A DNA stretch of 27,289 bases. Origin: a virus. The translations under genes were made by a program, and so were the position numbers. This document shows, in pieces, positions 2,352-23,069 of this stretch (its first letter is position 1; each line of letters starts with the position of its first letter). The DNA lies in the IMG/VR virus record IMGVR_UViG_3300047564_001896, positions 1 to 27,289 of that record. One strand, 5' to 3'. Under the pieces are notes generated by a model. The model ran no database searches and was not told the origin of the DNA. It saw only the letters and a list, made by a program, of their open reading frames with translations.

Positions 2352-2933
2352 TTATTGAGGTAAGTATTTGTATCTTGAATCAGTAATCTTGATACCAAGT
2401 TTTTTCATATCTTCTGCATAACCCCTTTTGGTCACGAAGGGTGAGTTGAACGCAGAACGCTGGTCTGGGTAGATTTCCATACCTGTTTCAGTACCGAATT
2501 CGGGGAACTTGGTCTCGTTATCAATCAAGTATCCAACCAATCTTTCAGCATACCATTCAGCTTTGTTTCTAACTGAATCACGTTTCTTGTCATAGATTCT
2601 CATATCCGCAGGTTGACCTTCTTGACCACCTTGTGGGATGAGTAATCCGTTATTACGAGGTCTCAACCAAATGGCTTCAAGCGCTTCGTAGTAAGACCAA
2701 TAAAGTAATGTGTCTTGGATGTAAGTTGTCATAAGGAATAGGTAATTACCACTCAATGATGATGAGTTTACATCTGAAATCAATTTTTGATAGAGTTTGT
2801 ATCCAAGATATTGTTGAATGTGAATATCTTGAGCTTCTCTGATTGCGTTCTTCAACAAATCAGCGTCAACTGACTGATTCAAGTCAGAAAACGCTTTGAG
2901 TTTGTTTTCGCTAATGAATAAAGTAGTAACCAT
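2352..2933 (-). CDS. Head-tail adaptor / head completion protein (DUF6712-like)
   Basis: A 193-aa protein starting MVTTLFISENKLK. It is mostly helical by composition, with a conserved-looking core around QYLGYKLYQKLISD and a charged DKKRDSVRNKAEWYAERL helix. This layout fits the DUF6712-like proteins that sit next to the portal in Bacteroidota phages and are treated as gp6-like adaptors bridging portal and tail. The start overlaps the portal stop by one base (TAATG), so the two genes are translationally coupled, which supports a connector role. The family call rests on pattern and context, not on a catalytic motif. Confidence 0.65.
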   Translation of the reverse strand: MVTTLFISENKLKAFSDLNQSVDADLLKNAIREAQDIHIQQYLGYKLYQKLISDVNSSSLSGNYLFLMTTYIQDTLLYWSYYEALEAIWLRPRNNGLLIPQGGQEGQPADMRIYDKKRDSVRNKAEWYAERLVGYLIDNETKFPEFGTETGMEIYPDQRSAFNSPFVTKRGYAEDMKKLGIKITDSRYKYLPQ

Positions 2934-4129
2934 TATACTATTCCCTCTGCTTTAGTTTCCAAGATTAGGTCTTCACCTGCTTCTGCTTCAACTGATGTCA
3001 CTACATCAACTTCAGTTGTTCCATCATCAAACAACTTGATTTGCTGAACACCCAATACCGTGTCTACACCATTTACAGCGAATAACATCTCAAAAGTCTT
3101 GAGGATGTCTGATTGCATTGGATAGATTACCGTGGTCAAGAAGTGTGCGTATGCGTCAAGTAATTCTTGTCTACCACCTAATTGACCTTCCGTCTTGATA
3201 CCTAACAACATAGGTGATGTGATTCGGTGACCTGTCAAAATCTTTTGTGTCACCATATCATTTACAGTTGTGTAGTATCCATCCGCACCATTTTGTGGGA
3301 TTGGTGTGATTACGGGCGCTTGGTCTTTGTCTGCAACATCCATATACATCAACGAACCTGCGTTGTCTGACCCTGCGTATGCTGCTCGTAGTTGACGCTC
3401 AATTGCTTCACGTTCTTCTTCGTTTGCATCAGTAAATGTGGTGATTGCAAGTGATGGTGCTAAACCATTCTTGATATTATTTTTGTGGAAGTTGTCCACC
3501 TCTGCGTCTAACTCAATTGTTTTCAATGCTCCCATATAATCAGGGATTGGGTAGTAATCCAAACCTGCGGTGTAAGGTCTGAAGTATAACAATTGACTTG
3601 GAGCAGTTCTATCTACCTTTGAAAATGATGGTAGGTAAGGTAAATCTTTTTTGTATGGAATAACACCATATCTTTTACCAAAATACTTGGAGATGTAATA
3701 TCCAGGAATGTGACCTCTATGGTCAGACTTATGCGCTCTGATATAAGAAAAATCAACGTGATAAATTTCAGCAATCTTGGTTCTATCATTTGACCAAATG
3801 ATTTCTAATGCGAAACCACCAAAAAGAACTCTATCTAAAGCGACTTTGTTGAAGATATCATTCCAAGTTTCATCTTCTTTGTTTACTTTATTCAACAAAT
3901 CTTCGTTGATACCTGTCAAACCTTGACCAATTACTGCTTGGTGTTTAGCGTTGACAGCAGTTGCGTGAACTGATGACTTGTGAAATAAATCAATTAGAAG
4001 TTGTGGGAACTTATTGCTCTCACCATAGTATACGACATCACCTTTGTCGTCTTCAAATACATACCCATCAGGGTAGTAAAACTCCCCATATTTTGGGATA
4101 ATGGTGAATTTGTGTTTTTGTGCTTCCAT
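2933..4129 (-). CDS. Portal protein
   Basis: A 398-aa portal, the dodecameric ring at the capsid vertex through which DNA is packaged. Recognisable portal features include an N-terminal wing (YGESNKFPQLLIDLF), the segment RVLFGGFALEIIW, a DYYPIPDYMGALKTIELD helix leading into FHKNNIKNGLAPS, and the clip/stem part with KILTGHRITSPMLLGIKTEG. I chose ATG 4129 (MEAQKHKF), which falls 4 nt after the upstream stop. An in-frame ATG at 4168 would add 13 residues but overlap the previous gene by 35 nt. It is unusual that the portal lies about 18 kb downstream of the large terminase and after the capsid gene. Confidence 0.88.
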   Translation of the reverse strand: MEAQKHKFTIIPKYGEFYYPDGYVFEDDKGDVVYYGESNKFPQLLIDLFHKSSVHATAVNAKHQAVIGQGLTGINEDLLNKVNKEDETWNDIFNKVALDRVLFGGFALEIIWSNDRTKIAEIYHVDFSYIRAHKSDHRGHIPGYYISKYFGKRYGVIPYKKDLPYLPSFSKVDRTAPSQLLYFRPYTAGLDYYPIPDYMGALKTIELDAEVDNFHKNNIKNGLAPSLAITTFTDANEEEREAIERQLRAAYAGSDNAGSLMYMDVADKDQAPVITPIPQNGADGYYTTVNDMVTQKILTGHRITSPMLLGIKTEGQLGGRQELLDAYAHFLTTVIYPMQSDILKTFEMLFAVNGVDTVLGVQQIKLFDDGTTEVDVVTSVEAEAGEDLILETKAEGIV

Positions 4130-4133
4130 ATTC

Positions 4134-4553
4134 TTATCCGTTGAATACCACATAAGCTGCGTTTTCATTAGTAGAAGAATACTCCGTTCTTGCTATACTC
4201 TCTGAAACATACGCTTTTGTAGTCATTTCGTTGATATACGAATCTACCGTTCCTACTGACCAAACTACTTGAGATGTACCCCAAACTTCAGTAGATGTTC
4301 CCCAAATTGTAGAAACACCCGCTAAAACTTTTTGGAAAGTGAGGTCATAGGTTCCACCTTTGAGGTCAATGTCAGTAGGAAGTGTGACTTGTCCTTTTAC
4401 CCAATTTCCGGATGATGTTGCTGGGAATAGAAATAATGAACTACTTTCAGTAAATCCGCCAACAAATAAAGCTCTCATACTCTCACCCGATGAAATAGAT
4501 GATGAGGGTATAAAAGCGAAGTTGTTACTTGATGATGCGTATAAATAAATCAT
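4134..4553 (-). CDS. Small virion-associated protein, function unknown
   Basis: A 139-aa protein starting MIYLYASSSNNFAF, rich in S, T and V with few charged residues, as in beta-structured virion proteins. The middle holds a near-duplicated motif (STIWGTSTEVWGTSQVVW). The fold resembles small immunoglobulin-like or beta-sandwich decoration or tail proteins only in composition; I recognise no family. It is the first gene after the terminator at 4565-4616 and directly precedes the portal, so it is probably made in modest amounts with the connector proteins. Confidence 0.6.
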   Translation of the reverse strand: MIYLYASSSNNFAFIPSSSISSGESMRALFVGGFTESSSLFLFPATSSGNWVKGQVTLPTDIDLKGGTYDLTFQKVLAGVSTIWGTSTEVWGTSQVVWSVGTVDSYINEMTTKAYVSESIARTEYSSTNENAAYVVFNG

Positions 4554-6932: not shown

Positions 6933-9386
6933 TTATTGGAAATTAGATTGTTTTTTATTGAGAAGCTCATCCAAGAAGAAGCCCTCAACTGAAAAACCTT
7001 TCAACAATCCGGTCTTGATATATTCGTTCCAAAGTAAAGAGTTCTTTACCTTGACTAAACCATACCAAGTTCCCTTTGGATATTCTTTGCCGCTTGAATA
7101 GACAAGAGACTTGTCTCTCTTTGGGTCAGCAACTAACCACGACTCAACTACGAACACATCATCAAACATTTGGTTTGAATCGTGCTCAATGTTTGTTTTG
7201 TCGGTGTATTTTTTCTCCATAAACTTGTGAGCAATCTTTTTGATTGCGTCTTCGGGGAAGTACACATAGTATTCCCCATTCATTTCATCGTATCGGTAGA
7301 TAAGTTTATCAGGAATCATAAAAGGACCCGCCAACACTTGTTGGTCTTGGAACTCTTGTCTATTGAATCTTGATGTTACGATGTCTGATGGATTTACAAT
7401 CTCACCACCAATCAAAGCAAGACCACTTGATGGGTTTGTGATTGTATTGATAGGACTTTCTACTTTTGTTTCTTCGTATCTACCCCACTTATTAGCTTGT
7501 GGATTGAAGAATTGTGTAATCGCTTCCCAAGAATGTCTGCAATACTTTCCACCTTTGTAAAGGAAAATATCATAGTAATTGTTTTTAGGTCCAGCACCAA
7601 AGCCAGTATTTACACCTTGTAAAGACATATTGTTGATGTCTTCTTTCCGATATACTTTGTTTAGGTCTAACATCAACGCACAAAAGTCTCTATTCTTTGA
7701 GTCTCTTGGTCCAACATACTTGTATCTGATACGAGTATATGGTGAATCTAAAAATGATGTCTCATTCGGCTTTGCAGCTGAACGGATTTTAGATGTTTCA
7801 ATGAATTGTCTTTTGAACACCACATCCTCTTCACCGATTTGGTCTAATTGTTCTAACAAAGCAATTTGTTCTTCAGGTGACAATTCATCCCACGACTTTT
7901 GGTTCATTTGTTTCCAAGTTTCATATGCTTCTTGTAACATTGAATCCATAGATGGGTCGTGTTCTTTACAAGGCATATAAACTATGAATTCACCTACTTC
8001 GTGTTCGTGGTATCCTTCACATCCTACGATTTTGGCAACCTCTTCAGCTTCTTGCGGAGTTGCAAAAACTGGTAGTCCATCCAAGTAGCCCAATAAATCA
8101 AATACGCGGGATACATAATTTTGTATATTTCTTTTATCTTCTTCATATCTTTCTCTCCAATAGGAATAGCAAATCGCAGCCGCTTGGTCTTGTGGGTATC
8201 CTTCGTTTAGAAGTGTTGGAATACAACGACCAAGGAAATCATCTTCGGTTTCTCCGGCTGATGGACTTACAAAGTTTTCTGGCTTTTGGATTTGTCTCAA
8301 ATTATCTACATACTGACCTACAACACTACCATCAATAGTTTCAATCAACGCAACGGGTCGTTCTTCGGTTGCGGTTAGCGTAAAATCCGTGCCAGGTACA
8401 TTTACTTCACCTGATACACGAAGGTCTTTGATTTGACCTCTTGCTCGGTCATCACCTTCACCTCTACCAGCGTAAGTCCACGATACATAATCACCAACAC
8501 TAAATCCGCCAGCATTGTCTACAAACACATCTTTTAGATAAGACTTGATTGTTACCAAGTGACCATTCATATAGCTTGTATCGTAATCTTTACCAACAAG
8601 TTCTTCAATCTCCAACATAAGGTCTTGGAAATCTGAAACAAGTACTGTGGCTTCATCAAGTTTATCTTGAGTTGTTTGACCACTTTCAATAGCTTGTTTT
8701 TCAATCAAGAATACATTATCAGCAATTTGAGCTGCTGAACGAATCATTCCAATAATATCTTCATCAAGATTAGTAAGAGATTTCAAACCTTCAAATGTTC
8801 CAATTGCGCCAGGACAAATGTAAAAGTATTTTGTTTTATATCCAAATACATCAATCTCCATAGATTGGTAAATGTCTTTTACAATCAAAGAACCTGATGG
8901 TTCATTTACATAATCAGGCAATGTAGAAACATCAATCGCTCCCTCAAACAAACCTAATTCTTTGAGTTTAGACTCAGCCCATCTTTTACCAGCAAGACCA
9001 CCCCAAAGCAAATACGAGATTGTTCCACACGCTGTGGTGTCTGATTCATCGTAGTATTCTTCAGCACGAGACAAGTAAGAGTACATTCTCTTGATTGTTT
9101 CAACCGAAATGGCTTCTTTGTTTGCAAGCTGCTGCGCTCTAACTTTACCAACTTGTGTAGCGCATTTGTTTCCTTGCTTCTCGTTGAGTTCAATTCCACG
9201 AGCAGCGTTGTTAGAAACACCATCTGGATAATCTGAATACGACTCAAACATATGAGGTTGAGTTTTAGAGAAGAACATAAAGTTTTCTTCAATAGCAGGT
9301 TCAGAAACAATTGAGATAGCATCAACACCACTCAAGTCATCCAACTCGTTGATGTCTAATTTGATAATTTTGACTGATTTGTTCAT
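6933..9386 (-). CDS. Multidomain XkdF-like (S78_2) prohead protease fused to structural modules
   Basis: An 817-aa protein. Residues about 5-40 (SGVDAISIVSEPAIEENFM) match the N-terminal signature of XkdF-like phage serine proteases, and residues about 685-805 hold the core: AGPFMIPDKLIYRYDEMNGE, NIEHD (His735) and KGFSVEG (Ser799), the likely His/Ser pair. Some 600 residues separate the two. They contain a YPDGVSNNAARGIELNE module (52-145), a Tudor/DUF2945-like segment (297-365, VSWTYAGRGEGDDRARGQ), a short Cys motif (380-411, RCIPTLLNEG...AAICYSYW), a His/Cys motif (434-477, GCEGYHEHE...YMPCKEHD), and a MuF-like structural region (527-620, YVGPRDSKNRDFC...YCRHSW). It probably matures the capsid and may itself be a virion protein. 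It lies upstream of scaffold and capsid. Confidence 0.82.
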   Translation of the reverse strand: MNKSVKIIKLDINELDDLSGVDAISIVSEPAIEENFMFFSKTQPHMFESYSDYPDGVSNNAARGIELNEKQGNKCATQVGKVRAQQLANKEAISVETIKRMYSYLSRAEEYYDESDTTACGTISYLLWGGLAGKRWAESKLKELGLFEGAIDVSTLPDYVNEPSGSLIVKDIYQSMEIDVFGYKTKYFYICPGAIGTFEGLKSLTNLDEDIIGMIRSAAQIADNVFLIEKQAIESGQTTQDKLDEATVLVSDFQDLMLEIEELVGKDYDTSYMNGHLVTIKSYLKDVFVDNAGGFSVGDYVSWTYAGRGEGDDRARGQIKDLRVSGEVNVPGTDFTLTATEERPVALIETIDGSVVGQYVDNLRQIQKPENFVSPSAGETEDDFLGRCIPTLLNEGYPQDQAAAICYSYWRERYEEDKRNIQNYVSRVFDLLGYLDGLPVFATPQEAEEVAKIVGCEGYHEHEVGEFIVYMPCKEHDPSMDSMLQEAYETWKQMNQKSWDELSPEEQIALLEQLDQIGEEDVVFKRQFIETSKIRSAAKPNETSFLDSPYTRIRYKYVGPRDSKNRDFCALMLDLNKVYRKEDINNMSLQGVNTGFGAGPKNNYYDIFLYKGGKYCRHSWEAITQFFNPQANKWGRYEETKVESPINTITNPSSGLALIGGEIVNPSDIVTSRFNRQEFQDQQVLAGPFMIPDKLIYRYDEMNGEYYVYFPEDAIKKIAHKFMEKKYTDKTNIEHDSNQMFDDVFVVESWLVADPKRDKSLVYSSGKEYPKGTWYGLVKVKNSLLWNEYIKTGLLKGFSVEGFFLDELLNKKQSNFQ

Positions 9387-9417: not shown

Positions 9418-11163
9418 TTAGCCGGGACCTAATCTACGTCTGTTTCTCAATCTTGCTTCTGCTTCCAAACCATTCTCTACATCACCAGCAATTACATACG
9501 CAGGGATGGGTTGAGGAGCCCCAGCTTGGAACGATGGGGTCAATTGTGTTCCTGCGGGCTGTTGACCGATTGGAATAAACGAACCTTGAGCACCAATGGT
9601 TGCAGCACCGCCACCACCACTACCAACTACTGGCGATGATGGAGAACCGCCACCTTCAAACTTTGAGTTTTGAATATCGGTGATTGCTTTCTTTGATGAT
9701 GCAATAATTGCAGCAACCAAGGCAGCACCCAAGATGGTTCCTAATCCAGGCACGGTTCCGTTCAACTTTTGAGCTGATGCGAATGCTTCAAACGCAGCTT
9801 GTGTAGAGGTAGTGACAACTTGTCCGATTTTATATTTCTTTGATTTCTCAAATCCCTCTTTGTTAGATTCATCAACAGTTTCACGAAGAGTAGAAAATAA
9901 CTGATTACCAACTTGAGCAACACCTTGAACAGTCTGAGCCGCTGAAGAATTTAGGAATGTTTTCACTCTCAAGTCAATGTTTTCTGCGTATGCTCCAATG
10001 GTGTCTAATGCTTTTTCAGTTTCAGTTCGTGTATCCTCAACAAAAGGTTTGATAGTTGATACTCGTTTTACAGCATTGTCACTCAACTTTTTATTTAGTG
10101 CGTCTTCGCTCTTTTGTAATTCATTAGAAAGATTTTCTTGAGCCTTTTTGAACGCGTCACTTCGCCATTTGATGTACATCAACCAATCTGCTTCTTGTTG
10201 AGCAATGGCTTCTTTACGTTTACGTTGGAACTCTTCTTCTTCTTTCTTTTGTAATTCTATTCTTTGCTTGCTTTGTTCTTCACGTCTTTTCTTTTCATCA
10301 TCCGCTTCTTTTTGTCTTACTTGACCAAGTTCAAGATTGAGAATGATTTCATTATCCAACGCTTTTTGAAGTTCATCGTTTATCTTTGTTCTATCTTCAG
10401 CAGTTTTAGCTAACTTACTCTCACTTTCTAATCTCTTGATAAGAGCATCATTAGCTTCAATTTCAAGTTGTTTGATTTGTTCAGCTGATTGACCCGTTGC
10501 GTTTGCAATTCGTAATTGGAAATTAGCAGACTTTTCCAATTGTTGGTTTCTTCTCAATTGTGCTTGAGTATTGGCTTCAGTCTCATCAGTATTTGATGAC
10601 ATCGCTTTGGTGAATGCGTAAATCCCTGCGGTGACTGCTGCAAGAACCGTAACAAGTAAGAAGATTGGGTTTGCATTCATCACCACGTTGAATGCGGCTT
10701 GAGCAATGGTCGCAGCTTTAGTAGCAACCGCAGCTGTACGTTCTGCAATAATTCTTGCTGCAATTTGGGCTTGTAAAGCACCCTCTGCAATGGCTCTTGC
10801 ACCAATAGCGATTGCGATGGCTCCTTGAACCTTTTCTTCAATCTTACCAATGGTCTCTGACTCAGCACCAAACAAAGCCATAGTTCCTGCGGTTACAGCA
10901 ACAGCCCCTGAAATGGCTTCAAATCCTTTTAGGAACGCTTCGGTCTTTTGTTGTGGTTCCAAACCTTCAAAGGTTTTCTCAAGCGTCTTGATTTCTGACG
11001 CAGTATTTCTTGCCTTGTCAGAAAGCTCAGTAAACGCCTTGGAACCAATCTCCGCTTGCTCTAATTGTTCGTTGATTTGTTCTAATTGTGTTTTCAGTCC
11101 AGCAAGGGTCTTGACTGAACTACCACTATCAACTTCTACATCAAATGCTACTGTTTTAGCCAT
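9418..11163 (-). CDS. Tape measure protein
   Basis: A 581-aa protein starting MAKTVAFDVEVDSGSSVKTL. It has an N-terminal coiled coil (LKTQLEQINEQLEQAEIG), a hydrophobic Ala/Ile-rich region (about 85-185, with AVTAGTMALFG and FLLVTVLAAVTAGIYAFTKA) and long charged coiled coils (200-345, EEQSKQRIELQKKEEEEFQR). A Gly/Ser/Pro-rich C-terminus follows. This is the usual plan of siphovirus tape measure proteins, which set tail length. At roughly 0.15 nm per residue the tail would be short for a siphovirus, about 85-90 nm (inference). AAGGA lies just upstream of the start. Unusually, the gene follows the tail-tip genes instead of the chaperone. Confidence 0.85.
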   Translation of the reverse strand: MAKTVAFDVEVDSGSSVKTLAGLKTQLEQINEQLEQAEIGSKAFTELSDKARNTASEIKTLEKTFEGLEPQQKTEAFLKGFEAISGAVAVTAGTMALFGAESETIGKIEEKVQGAIAIAIGARAIAEGALQAQIAARIIAERTAAVATKAATIAQAAFNVVMNANPIFLLVTVLAAVTAGIYAFTKAMSSNTDETEANTQAQLRRNQQLEKSANFQLRIANATGQSAEQIKQLEIEANDALIKRLESESKLAKTAEDRTKINDELQKALDNEIILNLELGQVRQKEADDEKKRREEQSKQRIELQKKEEEEFQRKRKEAIAQQEADWLMYIKWRSDAFKKAQENLSNELQKSEDALNKKLSDNAVKRVSTIKPFVEDTRTETEKALDTIGAYAENIDLRVKTFLNSSAAQTVQGVAQVGNQLFSTLRETVDESNKEGFEKSKKYKIGQVVTTSTQAAFEAFASAQKLNGTVPGLGTILGAALVAAIIASSKKAITDIQNSKFEGGGSPSSPVVGSGGGGAATIGAQGSFIPIGQQPAGTQLTPSFQAGAPQPIPAYVIAGDVENGLEAEARLRNRRRLGPG

Positions 11164-11165
11164 TT

Positions 11166-11306
11166 TTATTGTCCTTTTATTTTTCGTTTACTCATCCAAA
11201 CCACGCGTTCACTCATTATAGTGATTTTTGGTGTCCAACTCTGTTCATAAGTCATATATCTAAGCATCTTTAGGTTAGAGGGAAATTGATATACTACACC
11301 ACTCAT
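11166..11306 (-). CDS. Small conserved-position protein, 46 aa, unknown
   Basis: A 46-aa frame from ATG 11306 to TAA at 11166-11168: MSGVVYQFPSNLKMLRYM at the start and SKRKIKGQ at the end. The start overlaps the stop of the 1356-aa gene as ATGA, and the stop ends 2 nt before the tape measure ATG. The gap between those genes is thus filled exactly by one frame, the arrangement seen for real coupled phage genes. The protein is basic, with no membrane segment and no recognised family. It may be a small tail assembly factor, but this rests only on position. Confidence 0.55.
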   Translation of the reverse strand: MSGVVYQFPSNLKMLRYMTYEQSWTPKITIMSERVVWMSKRKIKGQ

Positions 11307-14300
11307 AACGATGAACCCATTATCAACCATTGACCTGAATCAGCATATAGTTCAATATAATCATATGATGATGAAAAAGAAGCTGATGGTAAACCTTCAA
11401 CATTTTGTGGTGATGTGAACGGAACCAATTTTACAAGTGTAGTTCCATCAAAAGTTCCATTTGCTTTTATCCTATAATGAATCTTCTTGTAATCATTATT
11501 TGATAAGTTAGGTAAGTTGATTGTTGTTGTACCTGGCGAGAACCCTGTCCAATTCAGTATGAATAAAGAATCGTGTTGGTATTGAGTATCGTATAAATTG
11601 ATAGTTGTAGCATCGCCACAAGTTAGGGTTTTAGGTTCAATAAATTGAGCTCCACCCATATAAGTGTCGCCCAAATAGTTTGAATTTTCACGATATTCTA
11701 ATAAATCAATACCATTACCTTCTTTATTTAGACCAATCACAGTGTGACCATTACCATTTATCACCACCTCATTTAGATGTGGGTTGATAAGGGTAGTAAA
11801 ATCACTATCTCTTGCAGCAGCGATATTACCATTGATAATTCCAACGTAATCACCACCATAGATTGCAGAACCTGAACCACCAACGATGAATCCATAGTTT
11901 GTTTGACTACCAATGGTTGCGTCTTGTGTATTTAGGATTGTTGCGTAGGTAGAACCCGTTCCAATGGTCAAACCATCACCAATTGTCATTGCTGATTTTA
12001 CGTTTTGTTGTAGGTCAATGTTTGAACCTACTGCAAAAGCTCTATCTACATCCTTACCTACTGAACCATCAGTAATACTACCCAATGCGTATCCGATAGA
12101 TTCGTCTTGGTTTAGGTTTCCATCCAAATTGTTTTTAGTACCTGTTTGGAGTGTCAAATTGAATTCAGGCGTATAAACTGCTTTATCACCTTGGAACGCT
12201 AACGAGTCCAACTTTGCGATGTTCTTCAAGAACGAACCTGAAGAGTATGTTTGGCCAGTTGTGGTGTCAACGTAAGTTGCGGTACCTGAAATTGGGTCAA
12301 ATGAACTCAACGTTAGGTCTGCTGTGGTAGTTCCACCAACACGGACACGACGGTGTCTCTTGAACTTGAACTTACTTACAGGCGCTTTCAATAATTCTAC
12401 TTGAACTGATGCTTTTTTGGAAAGATTGAAACCACTAATTTTGTTGATACGATAGTATGCGTCTTTGATAAAGATTTTATCGTTGAGCTGAATTGTTGGT
12501 AATTCATATGGGTCAAAGTAAATGTTGCAAGTCATTACTCTTGCGTCATCATCATACAATTCGTTGATGTATCTACCCCAATACTCGTTGAACAATCCGT
12601 TGATTGTGTATCCGTATGCAAAGTTGTTGTGGTATGGATACCACTTGTTTCCGTTGAAGTGTAATGATTTAGTTGAGCCATCCGCTGGAAGCGCTGACAA
12701 ATGGTTCATTGTTGCGTAAGATGTCTTACCTACTGAATTACCATTCTCATCTTTTACATAAATCTTACCACCAACCGCGTCAAGGGTTCCTCTATTAGGA
12801 ATGAGATATAATAATCTTGGCTTGAATTTGATTGGTTTCTTCTCACCATTCTCTGCTTTGTACAAGTGAGGAATGATGATGTTATTACCACCTGCGACCC
12901 CTTTGGTTGGAGTAGAAGCAAAGAACGAACCAACACTTCTTTCACCTTGAGCAATATCAGAGTCAGCAGTATAGAAGTTTGTTCCGTAAGGGTAGTCTCT
13001 ATCAAATTGTTGTTTAGAGTAAACGTTTAGAGAATCATCATCATCTTCTAATTTATGAATGATGGTTCTTGGTTGGTCTTGGATAGGATGCTTGATAGAA
13101 ACCTTGGTTACAGTGTCCCATTTGGTTGTCCAATCTTTGATTACGCCGGAGTCTCTCCAAGTATCAAATGGCTCAATAATGAGGGTCTTACGTTCATCCT
13201 TTTTAGGTTCAATAACCAAGTTGAACATCTGAATAATTCCGCTCAGGAAATCCAAGGATTTAGCGTTCTCCTCAAATTGTTGAGCCATATCAACATTACC
13301 ACCAATCAGTGCGGTGGGAGCGTACACGGTTTGGAAGAAACCGCCTGTAATGACAGCGTTTGGAGTTGTTCCGAAACTTTGTATTCTATATCTTGCATCA
13401 ACTTGGACGGTATCACCAACATCAAGGGTTTGACCTGGGGTGACAAAAGTCATAACACCACTTTCGTTTCCAATCAAATCATAGAATTGAGCAAAAGAAG
13501 AACCACCATTTACTTTTAGTCTAATGGTAAATTCTTTTAGGGTTGGTTCATCCGTTCCATCAGGCGCTGAAACATTCAGATTTAGTTTGAATGCGTACTG
13601 ACCTGCGGTTTGAACCGTGAATGTTTCAGTTCCTAAATTGAACCCTGCGGTTGGGTCGTATTGTTCTACTTCCCAAGTTACCGTTGAATACGCTGGAGAA
13701 TCCGTGAAAACCTGTGAAGTATTCTTACTCACATAAAATCCAGCATCTTGATACGCTTGAGATTGTACACCTAATTTGTCAGTTGCAGTTGGAAGAACAT
13801 AAATGTTGTTGAAGTCAGTAGAATCAAAGAATGATGATGAGTATCTATACCCAACTGAATCAAACATTGCGTCTATCACCTTCTTTGCTCTGATGGCTGG
13901 CTTGAACTGAATTGTTTTTAGTGGAGTTGTAGAGTTATCCATCTTACCATTTTGACCGCCTAATTCAATTAGGGGTAAGGTATTGTCAGATGAGTCCACA
14001 CCATAGTCAACAAGAGGATATACAATATCGCCAGAGAAAAGAGAGCCAGTCCACGATGCGGTAATTGATGTCATCGTGTAGTTGTGATTGTAATCACTAA
14101 AATCCAAGTCGGAAATATATTGGTCTTGGATAAGAGTTTGGAAGTCAATGGTTTCGTTTACAACCTCAACTGAATACGTTGTGTTGTTGTTTCCATCAGT
14201 AATAATCTCTTTTAGTACAAGATTACCTTTGTAGATTTCACCACCATTTACAAGGACTTGACAATCAACCGAATTCTTCAATCCCTTCACCGATGTGGAG

Positions 14301-15373
14301 TTCACATTGAAAGCCGCTGAAAAAAATTCATCATTTGTTTTAGATGATGGTAGTTCAAAGGTCTGCGATGCTACACCAAAGACTGAACCGATTTCAGTAT
14401 TTTCAATAGCTGATAAGTCAATTCTAAAATCAATATCAGATGGCGTGTCTAAATCGTATGTTTCGTTTAGATATTTTAGGTATCTAACAACTACAATACC
14501 GCTACCACCACTAGCGCCCGAAGATTGACCTGATGGAGCTGATTCACCTTGAGCTCCACCACCACCACCTCCACCCGTATTTGGTGAACCTGTAATGGCT
14601 AATTGAATAGAAGAGCCCGGGTCATACGCGCCACATCCGCCACCACCAAGTCCACCTGGACTTGCGCAAGGAATAGATGAAGCCGCGGTACTAACTCGGC
14701 CGCCACCACCACCACCACCAAAGTATTCGGTTGTTCCACGAATTGTAGTAGATTTACCATCACCACCAAAAGCAACACTCGTAATTGTATCAAGACTACC
14801 ACCATTTTCAGGTTGTGCTCCACCGCCTCCACCACCGGCAAGTATTAGTGTGGTTGCAGCAACATTTTGTTTACCACCATCACCACCTGTGGTTCCAAGT
14901 CCACCTGAACCTGTGATATCAATAGTTCCATTAGCAGTAGCACCACCACCGCCTGAACCACCATTGAGTCCATTGAATGTACTTGCGTTTGAAGATGAAT
15001 ATCCGCCATTGCCACCACTAACTGCGGTCAGTCCTGCAAATGTGGTAAATCCGTTGTTTGAACTTTTATTACCAATAACAACAGGCCAAGTAGAACCAGT
15101 AGAGCCCAATGAAATAAAATTTTCTAATACTTCACCACCACCACCGCCTCCACCTGCGGAATCGGTTCCTACCGCGTCACCACCATTACCACCAGCACCA
15201 ACCAATAAAACTTGGAATTGTGTATTTGGTGTAGTTTTTTCTACAATAAAATTAGCTGATGATGTAAATGTATGAATTACATATTGACCATCATATGTGA
15301 TTTCTCCACCACTAGCAACAGCACCATCTGATGCTATGCCAGTTGTAACTCTCAATACTAAATCATTTGCCAT
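11303..15373 (-). CDS. Large tail-tip / receptor-binding protein with Gly-rich adhesin domain
   Basis: A 1356-aa protein. Residues about 25-300 form a glycine-rich domain with at least six runs of five or more Gly and the closing signature GGSGIVVVRYL, as in the Gly-rich domains of phage adhesins. Residues about 310-1000 form a long tail-hub-like region with motifs such as IDAMFDSVGYRYSSSFFDS, TLIIEPFDTWRDSG and FKPRLLYLIPNRG. From about 1080 to 1260 the protein returns to short repeats of the AFAVGSNI/AMTIGDGL/GFIVGG type, related in form to those of the junction-spanning fibre. I infer a baseplate hub carrying host-recognition modules. It starts 3 nt after the 443-aa gene, and the 46-aa gene overlaps its stop. 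Confidence 0.75.
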   Translation of the reverse strand: MANDLVLRVTTGIASDGAVASGGEITYDGQYVIHTFTSSANFIVEKTTPNTQFQVLLVGAGGNGGDAVGTDSAGGGGGGGEVLENFISLGSTGSTWPVVIGNKSSNNGFTTFAGLTAVSGGNGGYSSSNASTFNGLNGGSGGGGATANGTIDITGSGGLGTTGGDGGKQNVAATTLILAGGGGGGAQPENGGSLDTITSVAFGGDGKSTTIRGTTEYFGGGGGGGRVSTAASSIPCASPGGLGGGGCGAYDPGSSIQLAITGSPNTGGGGGGGAQGESAPSGQSSGASGGSGIVVVRYLKYLNETYDLDTPSDIDFRIDLSAIENTEIGSVFGVASQTFELPSSKTNDEFFSAAFNVNSTSVKGLKNSVDCQVLVNGGEIYKGNLVLKEIITDGNNNTTYSVEVVNETIDFQTLIQDQYISDLDFSDYNHNYTMTSITASWTGSLFSGDIVYPLVDYGVDSSDNTLPLIELGGQNGKMDNSTTPLKTIQFKPAIRAKKVIDAMFDSVGYRYSSSFFDSTDFNNIYVLPTATDKLGVQSQAYQDAGFYVSKNTSQVFTDSPAYSTVTWEVEQYDPTAGFNLGTETFTVQTAGQYAFKLNLNVSAPDGTDEPTLKEFTIRLKVNGGSSFAQFYDLIGNESGVMTFVTPGQTLDVGDTVQVDARYRIQSFGTTPNAVITGGFFQTVYAPTALIGGNVDMAQQFEENAKSLDFLSGIIQMFNLVIEPKKDERKTLIIEPFDTWRDSGVIKDWTTKWDTVTKVSIKHPIQDQPRTIIHKLEDDDDSLNVYSKQQFDRDYPYGTNFYTADSDIAQGERSVGSFFASTPTKGVAGGNNIIIPHLYKAENGEKKPIKFKPRLLYLIPNRGTLDAVGGKIYVKDENGNSVGKTSYATMNHLSALPADGSTKSLHFNGNKWYPYHNNFAYGYTINGLFNEYWGRYINELYDDDARVMTCNIYFDPYELPTIQLNDKIFIKDAYYRINKISGFNLSKKASVQVELLKAPVSKFKFKRHRRVRVGGTTTADLTLSSFDPISGTATYVDTTTGQTYSSGSFLKNIAKLDSLAFQGDKAVYTPEFNLTLQTGTKNNLDGNLNQDESIGYALGSITDGSVGKDVDRAFAVGSNIDLQQNVKSAMTIGDGLTIGTGSTYATILNTQDATIGSQTNYGFIVGGSGSAIYGGDYVGIINGNIAAARDSDFTTLINPHLNEVVINGNGHTVIGLNKEGNGIDLLEYRENSNYLGDTYMGGAQFIEPKTLTCGDATTINLYDTQYQHDSLFILNWTGFSPGTTTINLPNLSNNDYKKIHYRIKANGTFDGTTLVKLVPFTSPQNVEGLPSASFSSSYDYIELYADSGQWLIMGSSL

Positions 15374-16709: not shown

Positions 16710-17216
16710 TTATTTCACCTTGATTTTAGAATTCTTACTAACCGCTACTACGATTGAGTTCTCAATATCTTTTACTCCAGCTTCCTCTAATTTAGGAATC
16801 AAGAAATTATTTACTACACCATCAATCGCAGGTTGGATAAATGGTCTAGCCTTTATCAATGCTCCCTCACGACCAATCTTTGCTTGAATTAGAAACGCAA
16901 AGGAACGAGTAGACATACCCTCTGGCGGTGTAATTAGTTTTCTCTGCAACCAATCAATGATAGGTTGAACAGGTGGTTTCCTACCAGCAGGTCTGAAGAA
17001 ACCCGCATCTTGATAGAGACCATAGTCTTCCATAACTATTTGGAATCCAAACACACCCTCTTGTTGTGGGGTAGGTTGATAGGTAATTGACCTAGCCAAT
17101 TCACCGGTAGCGAATAAATCTTTAGCCAAAGCACCATCACGCATAGCGTCAGCCATCAACTTTCCAGCTGCGTCTAATACCTCTTGAATGTTTTGGAAAT
17201 CTTCATTCGCCATCAA
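16710..17216 (-). CDS. HK97 gp10-like neck / tail completion protein
   Basis: A 168-aa protein (MMANEDFQNIQEVLDAAGKL; the second Met is an equally good start). It has the features of gp10-like head-tail joining proteins: an N-terminal helix, a TGELARSITYQP strand, GLYQDAGFFRPAGRKPPVQP, and the C-terminal motif IKARPFIQPAIDGVVNN. These proteins sit at the head-tail interface or tail terminus. The start overlaps the upstream stop by four bases (ATGA), so it is translated with the preceding small gene. Confidence 0.75.
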   Translation of the reverse strand: MMANEDFQNIQEVLDAAGKLMADAMRDGALAKDLFATGELARSITYQPTPQQEGVFGFQIVMEDYGLYQDAGFFRPAGRKPPVQPIIDWLQRKLITPPEGMSTRSFAFLIQAKIGREGALIKARPFIQPAIDGVVNNFLIPKLEEAGVKDIENSIVVAVSKNSKIKVK

Positions 17217-17401
17217 ATACCTTTGTATACTATCAGTAATTTACAATCTTCATCTAAATCGTAATCCCAATCTTGACCATCCATCTCGTAATCTATCTGG
17301 CGTGATATTCTTTTCATATCATCTAAATCCAATACATCATCACCACGTTGTGTATACACCGTGATAAACTCGTTTAGGTCTTCTCTTACAATTACGCTCA
17401 T
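17213..17401 (-). CDS. Small acidic protein in the tail module, unknown
   Basis: A 62-aa protein starting MSVIVREDLNEFITVYTQRG. It is strongly acidic in the second half (YEMDGQDWDYDLDEDCKLLI). Both ends overlap neighbours by an ATGA tetranucleotide (17398-17401 and 17213-17216), so it belongs to a tightly coupled run of tail genes. I recognise no family. Confidence 0.65.
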   Translation of the reverse strand: MSVIVREDLNEFITVYTQRGDDVLDLDDMKRISRQIDYEMDGQDWDYDLDEDCKLLIVYKGI

Positions 17402-17844
17402 TGATTAGTTGGGATATAGCAGATAGAAAGACCTGAAGTATCAGTAATAACTTGCATTTGTGAAACCCAACCAATTGCTCGGTCTTGGAACGCTTCACTA
17501 ACTGGGGTGATGTTCAACATCGCAATCTCATAGGTTTGTTGCTGAGCACCATCTCTAAAGAACGTATAAACATCGTATAAAGCACGTTCGGTGTCTGAAT
17601 ACGCCTGAATGTAATTGGAGTCATCACCCTTTGGGATTTCCAACATAAACACCTCAAACGTAAGGGTTCGTTGTCCGTAAGGAGAAACCCCTTGTGATGA
17701 AAGCGGTCTCAACCACATCAAGGGGTAGGGTTGGTTGATGGTGTCGTTCAGCTTGTCTACATTACCAAAGCCAAATGACTGAATGTAGATATGATAGTTT
17801 GCTGCGGCTTCAAACTTCTCTACTATTTCTTTGAATGTTTTCAT
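17398..17844 (-). CDS. Tail terminator-like / minor tail protein
   Basis: A 148-aa protein starting MKTFKEIVEKFEAAANYHIY. The pattern is an N-terminal helix, a PYPLMWLRPLSSQG strand, a long strand pair (LTFEVFMLEIPKGDDSNY), a central helix (YSDTERALYDVYTFFRDG) and a final strand region (ITPVSEAFQDRAIGWVSQMQ). This resembles tail terminator (lambda gpU-like) proteins. It begins inside the stop of the frameshift product (ATGA at 17841-17844), which is independent evidence that the -1 frame is translated. Confidence 0.6.
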   Translation of the reverse strand: MKTFKEIVEKFEAAANYHIYIQSFGFGNVDKLNDTINQPYPLMWLRPLSSQGVSPYGQRTLTFEVFMLEIPKGDDSNYIQAYSDTERALYDVYTFFRDGAQQQTYEIAMLNITPVSEAFQDRAIGWVSQMQVITDTSGLSICYIPTNQ

Positions 17845-18140
17845 AATCGTGTCCTTTGTGTCATCTCAGCCATTCGCTGTTGTCTTTCTTGTTCGTTCTG
17901 AATATCCTTTTCCATCGCCATCCAATTCAATAAGAATATAATGTTTACATCAAGGATTGATTTCTTTCCGGTGATGTGGAGGACTTGTGAACTAATTCCT
18001 CGTAAGATGTATAACCATCCGAAATGTTGAGCGATTGAAGGGCCAGTTCTATCATCTGACTCATCTCCTTCTTCTGCTCCTTTGTCAACTCCGGGGAAGA
18101 GAGAACTAAATCTTTTTGTAACATCATTCCGAACCCCAAA
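17841..18140 (-). CDS. Tail assembly chaperone, -1 frameshift extension (GT-type)
   Basis: This is the second frame of the chaperone gene, fused after codon 184 by -1 slippage to give a product of 283 aa. The extension contains IAQHFGWLYILRGISSQVLH and ILDVNIIFLLNWMAMEKD, then a charged end (NEQERQQRMAEMTQRTRL). It matches the shape of phage T domains (FGW...L...hydrophobic helix...EKE). Three points support real translation. The frame stays open exactly to an ATGA overlap with the next gene. Its first 62 codons have G/C in the third position in only 19 cases, typical of the genome. The reading from ATG 18691 to TGA 17841 is 851 nt, which a -1 shift turns into 284 codons. Confidence 0.78.
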   Translation of the reverse strand, partial: FGVRNDVTKRFSSLFPGVDKGAEEGDESDDRTGPSIAQHFGWLYILRGISSQVLHITGKKSILDVNIIFLLNWMAMEKDIQNEQERQQRMAEMTQRTRL

Positions 18141-18691
18141 AAAAAAGTGAGCGCCCCAAATGTATAGCTGATTGGTAGGTCTTTGAATACCTCTGCTCTC
18201 CAATCTCTTTTCTCTACATCGTACTCTTCAACTGAATACAACTTGAATAGAGACTCTGATGAACCCATCAAGGTTTTGATGTAGTTCTTTACCTTCCAAG
18301 AGAATGAATCAAAATTAGATTCAGTAATGGGTCGGTATAGAATCGCCATCAGCTCTTCTAAATTATTTATGGGGTCTTTTAGTCTTGAATCTAAATCAAT
18401 CCACTCTGCTACTGACATTTTGGATAAGGGCTGAAACCCATATACTACACCCTTGAATTCAAACACAGGGTAGAACTCATTTGTAATTTCGTTTAGTAAT
18501 TGTGAGACTCCCTTGTAAACGGCTAACATATCGGTTAGATTCCATCTCATCACTTCTTCAGCCGAATGTTCGGTAGTTGCAACAATAGTATAGACAACTC
18601 TCTCAAGCTCATCCAAGTGTTCAAATGAACCAAGGGACTTGTAGTGCTTGATTGAGAAGTAATCGGGCAATTGAACTTGTATCTTTTTCAT
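17945..18691 (-). CDS. Tail assembly chaperone, G-type product
   Basis: A 248-aa protein starting MKKIQVQLPDYFSIKHYKSL, with EVMRWNLTDMLAVYKGVSQL, a MSVAEWIDLDSRLKDP segment and DLPISYTFGALTFFLGFG. This is the organisation of the short (G) form of siphovirus tail assembly chaperones, which coat the tape measure protein. Around residues 182-185 the frame runs through nine T (18146-18138), a site for -1 slippage into the frame described at 17841-18140. The C-terminal 62 codons past the slip have G or C in the third position in 33 cases, unlike the AT-rich codons typical of this genome, so this tail may be the less constrained of the two readings. Confidence 0.75.
   Translation of the reverse strand: MKKIQVQLPDYFSIKHYKSLGSFEHLDELERVVYTIVATTEHSAEEVMRWNLTDMLAVYKGVSQLLNEITNEFYPVFEFKGVVYGFQPLSKMSVAEWIDLDSRLKDPINNLEELMAILYRPITESNFDSFSWKVKNYIKTLMGSSESLFKLYSVEEYDVEKRDWRAEVFKDLPISYTFGALTFFLGFGMMLQKDLVLSSPELTKEQKKEMSQMIELALQSLNISDGYTSYEELVHKSSTSPERNQSLM
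18138..18146 (-). promoter_or_regulatory. Slippery site for -1 programmed frameshift (nine T)
   Basis: The minus strand reads AC TTTTTTTTT GGGG. In the chaperone frame the codons are ACT TTT TTT TTG; slipping back one base at T TTT TTT gives TTT GGG GTT and opens the T-domain frame. I did not find an obvious strong pseudoknot just downstream. The alternative is a homopolymer length error: ten T would fuse the frames directly. Confidence 0.72.
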
Positions 18692-18901: not shown

Positions 18902-19378
18902 TTATTTAGCCCACTTCTTTCGTGTAACTATCTGACCGATTTGTGGGATGGATACATTGAATACTTTTGATAGTCTTTCGTAAGTGTACTTGCCTGTTGC
19001 GTATTGTTGTCTGATATAGTCTACTTGAACTTGGGTTAGTTTAGCCATATTGTGTTCTTCACCTCTTTTCATCAAACCATTATCGTAAGCGTGTTGGGTA
19101 TTTTCTGATTTCGTAACCCACTCAAGATTAGTGTAGTGGTTATTTTCTCGGTTTCCATCCTTATGGTTGATGTCTGGTTTATTGTCAGGGTTTTCTACAT
19201 ACGCAAACCCAACTAATCTATGAACGAATTTTGCGTAGCCTTTACTATCTTTATACAATATCACTTGAGGATATCCTTTGCCCGAAAGTCCGGGCTTCAA
19301 CCACCTCTTTACATTATTAGACCAAACCTGTCCTAATCTTGTTACTGAATAATTTTCAAATCCTTCTACCTCTTTCAT
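18902..19378 (-). CDS. NUMOD4/HNH homing endonuclease
   Basis: A 158-aa protein. ATG 19378 (MKEVEGFENYSVTRLGQVWS) is set by AAGGAG four bases upstream; an upstream in-frame ATG at 19447 would add 23 residues encoded by a leader hairpin and is unlikely. The N-terminus is a NUMOD4 motif (EGFENYSVTRLGQVWS...K). Residues about 50-92 are the HNH nuclease (FVHRLVGFAYVENP, INHKDGNRENNHYTNLEWVT), with His53, His72 and Asn80 or Asn84 as likely catalytic/metal residues. Residues 114-155 form a helix-turn-helix (YTYERLSKVFNVSIPQIGQI). It is a free-standing, apparently intact selfish nuclease gene with its own promoter and terminator, inserted between the replication-type genes and the tail module. Confidence 0.9.
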   Translation of the reverse strand: MKEVEGFENYSVTRLGQVWSNNVKRWLKPGLSGKGYPQVILYKDSKGYAKFVHRLVGFAYVENPDNKPDINHKDGNRENNHYTNLEWVTKSENTQHAYDNGLMKRGEEHNMAKLTQVQVDYIRQQYATGKYTYERLSKVFNVSIPQIGQIVTRKKWAK

Positions 19379-19382
19379 AGTT

Positions 19383-19388
19383 CTCCTT
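19383..19388 (-). promoter_or_regulatory. Shine-Dalgarno sequence of the HNH gene
   Basis: AAGGAG on the minus strand, 4 nt before ATG 19378. It decides the start against the upstream ATG. Confidence 0.7.
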
Positions 19389-19401
19389 TTAGGCGCCAGA
19401 G

Positions 19402-19440
19402 GTGGGTTAGGGTAAAAACAAATAAAACACCCCAACCCAC
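19402..19440 (-). promoter_or_regulatory. Leader hairpin of the HNH gene
   Basis: In minus-strand RNA GUGGGUUGGGGU (19440-19429) pairs with ACCCUAACCCAC (19413-19402): twelve pairs, one of them G-U, with a 15-nt U-rich loop. The same arms on the plus strand would have an A-C mismatch, so the structure favours the mRNA strand. It lies between the predicted transcription start (about 19457) and the Shine-Dalgarno site and may control translation or mRNA stability. Confidence 0.65.
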
Positions 19441-19463
19441 ATAGCAATCAAAAATCAATAATA

Positions 19464-21608: not shown

Positions 21609-21840
21609 ATCTTTTCTTTTCTAACCATTGTGAGTATTCAGCATCAGTTTGTTTTTTTCTATTCACCACCGAAGGTTTTACATATTCCTTCTTTGATTTT
21701 AGGATATCAACTTTACCAGCATCTTTTACATACTTCTTCCAAAGCTTTAGCGCTGAGTTGATGTCATTATTTACTACTTTGAATCCGTTGGGTTTACCAA
21801 CGATAATCATATCTTCTTTTCTTGTTCTTTGTTTCTTCAT
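21592..21840 (-). CDS. rpsU: Ribosomal protein bS21 homologue
   Basis: An 82-aa protein from ATG 21840, which overlaps the terminase stop as ATGA; Met11 (MIIVGKPNGF) is an alternative start. Residues 20-63 align by eye with E. coli bS21: FKVVNNDINSALKLWKKYVK matches [20 protein letters not shown]. AG at 41-42, then YVKPS (53-57) and RKK (61-63), match AG, YEKPT and RKR. bS21 is a small basic 30S protein near the 3' end of 16S rRNA. In Bacteroidota it helps to hide the anti-Shine-Dalgarno sequence. Phage-encoded bS21 genes are known, so this copy may exchange into host ribosomes during infection. The C-terminus (TDAEYSQWLEKKRYDREH) differs from the E. coli protein. Confidence 0.83.
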   Translation of the reverse strand: MKKQRTRKEDMIIVGKPNGFKVVNNDINSALKLWKKYVKDAGKVDILKSKKEYVKPSVVNRKKQTDAEYSQWLEKKRYDREH

Positions 21841-23069
21841 CGTATTGAACCAATTTTTAGACCACCACCTCGTTTTGGATTTGTTCTGCAAGAGTTTGCA
21901 ATTGCAAGTGATAAAACACAATCATCGTGAAACCCTGATGGGTGTCCATATCGTATCTTACCACTTGGCAGAACTTCATATTCAAAAATCTCCAATTCAT
22001 CACCGAGCGGTGGAAATAAACTCAATGAGGGTAATTCAAGATTCATATCTTCAATATCAGCCATCAGCCTTCTGATTATATTCTCTTTAGTCTGATTTGT
22101 TTGGAAAAGGGGACTTGAACGTGAATATGCTTTCTTGATTTGTTCAAACATCACATCGCCAGGTCCGTTCGTTTCTACTAACAATTCTCTGACATTGTAA
22201 TGTTTACAAATCTCAACAACCTTATCCACAATCCGTGAGTATTCCATATGTCGTTCACGCCAGATAAACAAAACCCTACCCAACTCATCTATGATTGTGA
22301 GAACTGAATAGTCTTCACGATTACCAATATCAAGTCCTCCATAGATATTAGAGTTGGGTGATTTTTGGGGCCAGGAATCGTTTGTAAGGACACTTTTCAA
22401 TCCTCTGAACACTTGTCCATCTTGGTCTTGGAAAACCCCTTCAAACTCTTGTTTATAGACATTTTCAGGCAATGACTTTCTCTGCTCTTCCAAGAAATCT
22501 TTACTTACATAAGGAGATGCTGAAGATGGGAATGTGTATGCTTTATAGTTAGAGTAATCGTTTGATTTACCCATCATAAAGTAATCATAAAAGAAATTCT
22601 TTTTCTTGGGAGTTCCTGCAATGATTACCTTTTTACCTGCTGCTGTAATTGTTGGTAGAATTGATGTCTGCCAATCTGATGTTTTGATATCTTGACATTC
22701 ATCCACTAATAAGTAATTGATACTCAAACCACGAATAGAATCTGCTCTTTCAGCTGACCTAAACCATATCTTTGAACCATTTACTAATTTGATTTCATAA
22801 TCACTTCTATTTGCAGAAGCCATTATTTGGGTCGGAGCCAAAGCATCCATAATCTGACCCATCACTTTGTTGATTTGACTATAAACCGGGCTGACCCAAA
22901 GAACCTTTGATTTTGGGTTATTGATTGCATAATAAAGTAGTAAGTTGATAAGGGTAATTGTCTTACCAACTTGCCTACCACAAACTACGGTATGATATAA
23001 TGACTCTGAAGCCAGTACACCATCAATAACCTCTTTCTGCTCTTTGTAGGGTTTGTAACCTTTTATCAT
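21837..23069 (-). CDS. terL: Terminase large subunit
   Basis: A 410-aa protein starting MIKGYKPYKEQKEVIDGVLA. The ATPase domain has Walker A at 31-37 (GRQVGKT), Walker B at 119-124 (YLLVDE) and the coupling motif AGTP at 151-154. The C-terminal nuclease has acidic residues in GGLDIGNREDYSV (Asp247), LLVETNGPGD (Glu299) and FHDDCVLSLAIAN (Asp382/383). It packages and cuts the phage DNA at the portal. The length is normal for the family. It overlaps the upstream 73-aa gene by 47 nt and is coupled to bS21 through ATGA. Confidence 0.95.
   Translation of the reverse strand: MIKGYKPYKEQKEVIDGVLASESLYHTVVCGRQVGKTITLINLLLYYAINNPKSKVLWVSPVYSQINKVMGQIMDALAPTQIMASANRSDYEIKLVNGSKIWFRSAERADSIRGLSINYLLVDECQDIKTSDWQTSILPTITAAGKKVIIAGTPKKKNFFYDYFMMGKSNDYSNYKAYTFPSSASPYVSKDFLEEQRKSLPENVYKQEFEGVFQDQDGQVFRGLKSVLTNDSWPQKSPNSNIYGGLDIGNREDYSVLTIIDELGRVLFIWRERHMEYSRIVDKVVEICKHYNVRELLVETNGPGDVMFEQIKKAYSRSSPLFQTNQTKENIIRRLMADIEDMNLELPSLSLFPPLGDELEIFEYEVLPSGKIRYGHPSGFHDDCVLSLAIANSCRTNPKRGGGLKIGSIR

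What the first reader, a model, noticed from the sequence alone, without database searches (positions are those of the whole stretch)
17841..18691. Tail chaperone: 193 nt read in two frames with a nine-T slippery site
Frame 0 ends at 17945 and the -1 frame is open to 17841, where it meets the next gene as ATGA. The overlapping part has 33/62 G/C third positions in frame 0 but 19/62 in the -1 frame, so the -1 frame looks the more constrained one. Most G/GT systems slip near the end of G; here the slip is 64 codons before the end, giving two proteins with alternative C-termini (248 and 283 aa).
Basis: partly seen in the sequence, partly recalled or inferred. Interest (0 to 1): 0.68.

Follow-up and report, generated by a model that had tools for sequence, protein, structure and literature searches.

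The report
Phage gene with two overlapping endings
A phage gene, probably for a tail-building helper protein, uses a run of nine T's to make two proteins that share a beginning but have different endings read from the same DNA, and about 90 diverse relatives (probably all phages of Flavobacteria-type hosts) keep both the T run and the double reading.

Summary
Frame 0 (18691-17945) encodes 248 aa. T9 (18138-18146, minus strand) leads into an open -1 frame ending at 17841 in ATGA, giving 283 aa; 193 nt are read in both frames. It is conserved. Two close homologues keep T9 and both frames. A search anchored only on the -1-frame domain found the same layout in 78 of 78 untruncated contigs; 180 contigs (90 representatives) all have T9 or T10, never fewer, with 19-92 codons of dual coding. 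Both frames are under selection. A cultured relative, Nonlabens phage P12024S, has the site, unannotated. Tail-chaperone identity is likely, not proven: weak fold match to the HK97 chaperone, weak tail-protein profile hits. This favours RNA-polymerase slippage (about 0.55) over purely ribosomal slippage (about 0.4). Sequence alone cannot settle it.

The parts
17945..18691 (-). frame-0 product, 248 aa (G-like)
   Evidence: family profile match, hhalign 99.1% E 5e-19; AF2 model pLDDT 85.8
18138..18146 (-). T9 slippage run (ACT TTT TTT TTG)
   Evidence: T9/T10 in 180 of 180 untruncated relatives
17841..18146 (-). -1-frame extension entered at T9 (T-like; fused product 283 aa)
   Evidence: -1 extension in all relatives; profile match E 8.5e-4
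17945..18137 (-). 193 nt read in two frames
   Evidence: constraint in both frames
17841..17844 (-). ATGA overlap of -1-frame stop with next start codon
   Evidence: 58 of 90 relatives have ATGA here
17398..17844 (-). next gene, 148 aa; syntenic about 151-aa gene in relatives (phrog_30964 in 26 of 29 aligned members, not in the window's own copy)
16710..17216 (-). 168 aa, weak match to 'tail completion or Neck1'
   Evidence: phrog_5 E 8.8e-5
9418..11163 (-). 581 aa, weak match to tape measure protein
   Evidence: phrog_3336 E 2.7e-5
21837..23069 (-). terminase large subunit; directly upstream of the gene in relatives

Best explanation
This is a tail-assembly-chaperone-type gene (G/GT-like) of a tailed phage, probably of Bacteroidota. 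Most mRNAs are read in frame 0 to a 248-aa protein. At a run of nine T's the frame changes by -1, giving a 283-aa protein with the same first ~184 residues and a different C-terminal domain. The following ~64 codons encode both C-termini and both are selected. I think the change most likely happens when RNA polymerase slips on the T run and adds one U (net +1), so that an ordinary ribosome enters the -1 frame (about 0.55); a ribosomal -1 slip on U_UUU_UUU would give the same peptide (about 0.4). SHOWN: site, both open frames, conservation, selection on both frames. INFERRED: expression, the slipping machine, chaperone function. The confidence below is for programmed -1 recoding of a chaperone-type gene, whichever machine slips.
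For: T9 is identical in L006 and L007 (65% aa identity), with gapless dual coding. A search anchored on the -1-frame WGWYxSIY motif, which says nothing about the T run, gave T9/T10 and a -1 partner in 78 of 78 untruncated loci; 180 of 180 in all. The frame-0 protein alone would keep the run in about 17 of 90 representatives. No run is shorter than 9; register changes compensate: where the upstream T is lost two T's follow (Fisher p=1e-5; 8e-4 with the window clade counted once), three separate times on the tree, once within a 100%-supported sister pair (L143/L105). No downstream RNA structure (mean z 0.05 +/- 0.14). Nine is the run length at which selection against runs appears in many bacteria (PMC1088944), and bacterial slippage on nine A or T is established (PMC5009743). 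The P2-type ribosomal site is only TTTTTTG (PMC3091744). In 23 of 90 the -1 frame is closed within 6 codons upstream of the run, and 46 of 90 have no ATG/GTG/TTG there, which argues against internal initiation. Chaperone: HK97 chaperone 2ob9 aligned to residues 1-67 (Z 3.5); phrog_166 'tail protein' in 9 of 67 members; tape-measure-like gene downstream.
Against: Every T9 also contains an in-phase U_UUU_UUU, so the ribosomal mechanism is equally available, and all characterised tail-chaperone frameshifts that I know of are ribosomal. Z 3.5 is weak and unrelated folds score higher. The gene is not next to a tape measure gene and no major tail protein was identified. No RNA or protein data exist. 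Register counts are few (3 lineages with the upstream T lost). Published thresholds vary: an E. coli study gives at least 7 T (PMC6260861).
Confidence: 0.75

Rival explanations
1. Purely ribosomal -1 frameshifting on U_UUU_UUU, as in lambda or P2; the two extra T's are kept for efficiency or by flanking amino acids.
For: An in-phase U_UUU_UUU is present in all 90 representatives (follows from the states). Known tail chaperones use ribosomal shifts without stimulators (PMC5009743; PMC3091744). In most members the flanking T's fall on hydrophobic codons.
Against: No member has T7 or T8. When a flank loses T the other gains it. Residues at the flanks vary (V, L, F, I, T, S before; Y, W, L, S, F, C after) although the run does not.
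Confidence: 0.4
2. Sequencing error or a pseudogene: the true gene is one frame.
For: Long homopolymers are error-prone.
Against: 180 of 180 untruncated contigs show the same -1 layout and none is in one frame; both frames are under selection.
Confidence: 0.01
3. A phase-variable contingency run: replication slippage switches the frame on and off in the population.
For: T9 is a mutable repeat.
Against: 127 near-identical pairs all have equal run length, none differs; the genomic frame relation is -1 in every locus.
Confidence: 0.03
4. Recoding is real but the protein is another morphogenesis factor, not a tail assembly chaperone.
For: It lies directly after TerL in relatives, several genes before the tape-measure-like gene; Pfam and PDB sequence profiles find nothing.
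Against: N-terminal match to HK97 chaperone 2ob9, weak phrog_166 'tail protein' hits, a BFVD 'Tail assembly chaperone' hit (E 0.12, prob 0.99), and the G/GT-like -1 logic.
Confidence: 0.25

Closest known systems
Phage lambda G/GT tail assembly chaperones (and the HK97 equivalents)
   Same: one start, two C-termini by a -1 shift; downstream tail genes; weak fold match of the N-terminal part to the HK97 chaperone
   Different: slip is 52-92 codons before the end of frame 0 in nearly all members, so the second C-terminus is mostly dual-coded; the site is T9/T10, not the lambda site GGGAAAG (the lambda site is from my own knowledge); the gene is not adjacent to the tape measure gene
P2 E/E+E'
   Same: T-run slippery site, -1 shift, no downstream hairpin
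   Different: P2 site is TTTTTTG; here never fewer than nine T
Bacterial programmed transcriptional slippage (Thermus dnaX A9, Shigella spa13/mxiE)
   Same: homopolymer run at the frame change (nine A in dnaX); the slipped product has an extension that overlaps the start of the next gene, as in spa13
   Different: phage virion-assembly gene; both C-termini selected over a long dual-coded stretch; mRNA heterogeneity untested here
phrog_32199 / Nonlabens phage P12024S_38 and _39
   Same: same family and same T9
   Different: P12024S frame 0 ends soon after the site; deposited as two separate hypothetical genes

Membership tests
G/GT-type tail assembly chaperone | two products from one start by a -1 frame change | tested here: met
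   sequence layout and conservation; expression itself not tested
G/GT-type tail assembly chaperone | gene between major tail protein and tape measure gene | tested here: inconclusive
   tape-measure-like genes lie downstream with other genes between; major tail protein not identified
G/GT-type tail assembly chaperone | chaperone fold | tested here: inconclusive
   2ob9 Z 3.5 over 66 residues; no Foldseek PDB hit at E<=0.001; phrog_166 in 9 of 67
G/GT-type tail assembly chaperone | binds tape measure and tail tube proteins, absent from the virion | not testable with these tools
   needs biochemistry
programmed transcriptional slippage | homopolymer of about nine or more A/T | tested here: met
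   180 of 180
programmed transcriptional slippage | mRNAs of heterogeneous run length | not testable with these tools
   no transcript data
-1 programmed ribosomal frameshifting | in-phase X_XXY_YYZ heptamer | tested here: met
   U_UUU_UUU in phase in every member (follows)
-1 programmed ribosomal frameshifting | downstream stimulatory structure (common, not obligatory) | tested here: not met
   mean MFE z 0.05 +/- 0.14 over 60 loci; phage tail cases often lack one (PMC3091744), so this does not exclude membership

The most novel reading that the evidence does not exclude
A large, unannotated family of Bacteroidota phages makes its tail-chaperone pair by RNA-polymerase slippage on an obligatory run of nine or more T's instead of by ribosomal frameshifting, with nearly the whole second C-terminal domain dual-coded inside the first.
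Probability: 0.5. Interest if true: 0.75.

Novelty: new variant of a known kind. Interest (0 to 1): 0.62.

Why it matters
Tail-chaperone frameshifting is textbook ribosomal recoding. A family in which the run is never below nine while its register moves is a natural experiment separating polymerase from ribosomal slippage. It is testable in a cultured phage (P12024S). It also gives about 90 diverse examples of long same-strand dual coding under selection, and shows that standard annotation misses the fused product (P12024S_38 and _39 are deposited as separate hypothetical genes).

Tried and rejected
Sequence error, phase variation and internal initiation: rejected or disfavoured. The -1 frame being open by chance, or frame 0 being open by chance: rejected. 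Pfam, PDB-sequence and Foldseek-PDB searches gave no useful hit; absence there shows nothing. The first AF2 model, from 3 sequences, was poor (pLDDT 51), though its viral Foldseek hits led to P12024S. A prokaryote-genome scan for close relatives found none; the motif scan found one Winogradskyella MAG contig. The three neighbour families tested had no informative PDB match. The immediate +1-frame stop (3-7 codons in all 90) looks like a by-product of the two coding frames.

Full report
OBSERVATION. The minus-strand gene at 18691-17945 encodes 248 aa. At 18146-18138 lies T9 in codons ACT TTT TTT TTG. The -1 frame is open across it and ends in TGA at 17843-17841, sharing ATGA with the next gene; the fused product is 283 aa, and 193 nt after T9 are read in both frames. 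T9 is the longest homopolymer in the window. The window is an IMG/VR virus record; the contig in L005 is identical to it over 8,571 bp, so it counts as the same virus.

CLOSE HOMOLOGUES. L006 (66% identical in frame 0) and L007 have the same T9 in the same codons, both frames open, and no indels in the overlap until near the frame-0 end; frame 0 ends 58-67 codons past the run. Among conserved degenerate codons, synonymous change is depressed in the overlap, for frame 0 relative to the region before the run (p=0.005, 0.12, 8e-5) and for -1 relative to its single-coded end (p=5e-4, 3e-4, 0.04).

FINDING THE FAMILY. A first AF2 model (weak) matched viral models, among them a protein of Nonlabens phage P12024S. 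That phage has T9 too, leading by -1 into the annotated P12024S_39. Its G-like protein found 63 relatives, whose contigs show T9 or T10 and a -1 extension; that search used a peptide pattern at the site (FFYHLGND), so it could be biased. The unbiased test anchored on the -1-frame motif WGWYx[ST]IY: of 80 listed loci the 78 untruncated ones all had T9/T10 and a -1 partner frame. Over everything held, 177 records plus three more (L082, L090, L183) have T9/T10; no untruncated exception was seen. Profile comparison joins the window clade to the family (G: 99.1%, E 5e-19, aligned through the site; T: E 8.5e-4 but probability only 24%). Hosts are inferred: P12024S infects a Persicivirga strain and the one genome hit is a Winogradskyella MAG contig.

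SELECTION ON BOTH FRAMES. Resampling -1 codons synonymously, frame 0 would stay open about 17 codons; the observed median is 65 (range 19-92), and 93% of the 90 representatives are beyond the 5% level. In 444 pairs the synonymous-change fraction is 0.515 before the run, 0.218 (frame 0) and 0.315 (-1) in the overlap, and 0.366 in the -1 end. The pairs are not independent, so these are descriptive. The deeper AF2 model (pLDDT 85.8) folds the first ~35 frame-0 residues after the site as confident helices; the last ~25 residues are low-confidence.

RUN LENGTH. Taking the in-phase core T_TTT_TTT, the T's before and after it are (1,1) in 70 representatives, (2,1) in 8, (1,2) in 6, (0,2) in 5 and (2,0) in 1. 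The total is never below nine. All five with no upstream T have two downstream, against 6 of 85 of the rest (p=1e-5; 8e-4 with the window clade as one). On the tree the (0,2) state arises three times, once within a sister pair at 100% (L143/L105), and the whole set needs 12 state changes (quick tree, careful search not finished). From frame-0 amino acids and codon usage, the run would be intact in 17 of 90. The -1 'FF' codons at the run need not be read in the -1 frame in a shifted product, so they do not by themselves explain it. This is inference from pattern: selection acts on run length.

MECHANISM. Bacterial polymerase slippage on runs of nine A or T is established (PMC5009743), and nine is where avoidance of runs begins in many genomes (PMC1088944); one E. 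coli study sees slippage from 7 T (PMC6260861). The P2 ribosomal site is only TTTTTTG (PMC3091744). No downstream structure was found. I favour polymerase slippage at about 0.55 and leave about 0.4 for the ribosome; both could contribute.

FUNCTION. Gene order in relatives is TerL, this gene, about 151 aa, about 175 aa, about 370 aa, about 700 aa, then a 600-730 aa protein, which in L133 weakly matches the tape measure family TMP_2. The HK97 chaperone 2ob9 aligns to residues 1-67 (Z 3.5, weak), 9 of 67 members weakly match phrog_166 'tail protein' and 64 match phrog_32199 of unknown function. Chaperone identity about 0.75.

NOVELTY. Two products from a tail gene by -1 recoding is known; I did not find the long selected dual coding or the minimum-nine run described in the papers I could search. 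That library is incomplete, and Xu et al. 2004, the main survey of tail frameshifts, was not read.

Noticed in passing
window 18902-19447: An HNH endonuclease gene (phrog_59 E 4e-48) sits directly upstream of the gene; in relatives TerL is the direct upstream neighbour, so it looks like an insertion.
   Followed up: partly
window 6933-9386: An 817-aa ORF carries a head-maturation-protease-like C-terminus and a stretch matching the end of a portal family (phrog_33693), while a separate portal gene lies at 2933-4168.
   Followed up: no
window 11303-15373: 1356-aa ORF with a glycine-rich N-terminal domain (PF21722) and a part matching phrog_38559, which in relatives is a separate gene of about 700 aa.
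   Followed up: no
L011 23136-23830: P12024S_38 and _39 are deposited as two hypothetical genes but are joined by T9 and an open -1 frame.
   Followed up: yes
L012 10048-10927: Flavobacterium phage 6H has a fold-level relative (191 aa) with T6 and a stop in -1 directly after it; its arrangement is unresolved.
   Followed up: partly
L086, L088, L097, L105, L114, L119, L123, L125 near the frame-0 end: A recurring GCAAAAAAAC motif 13 codons before the frame-0 stop in one set of relatives: a possible second slippery run.
   Followed up: no
90 representatives, just after the T run: The third (+1) frame stops within 3-7 codons in every one, probably forced by the two coding frames.
   Followed up: partly
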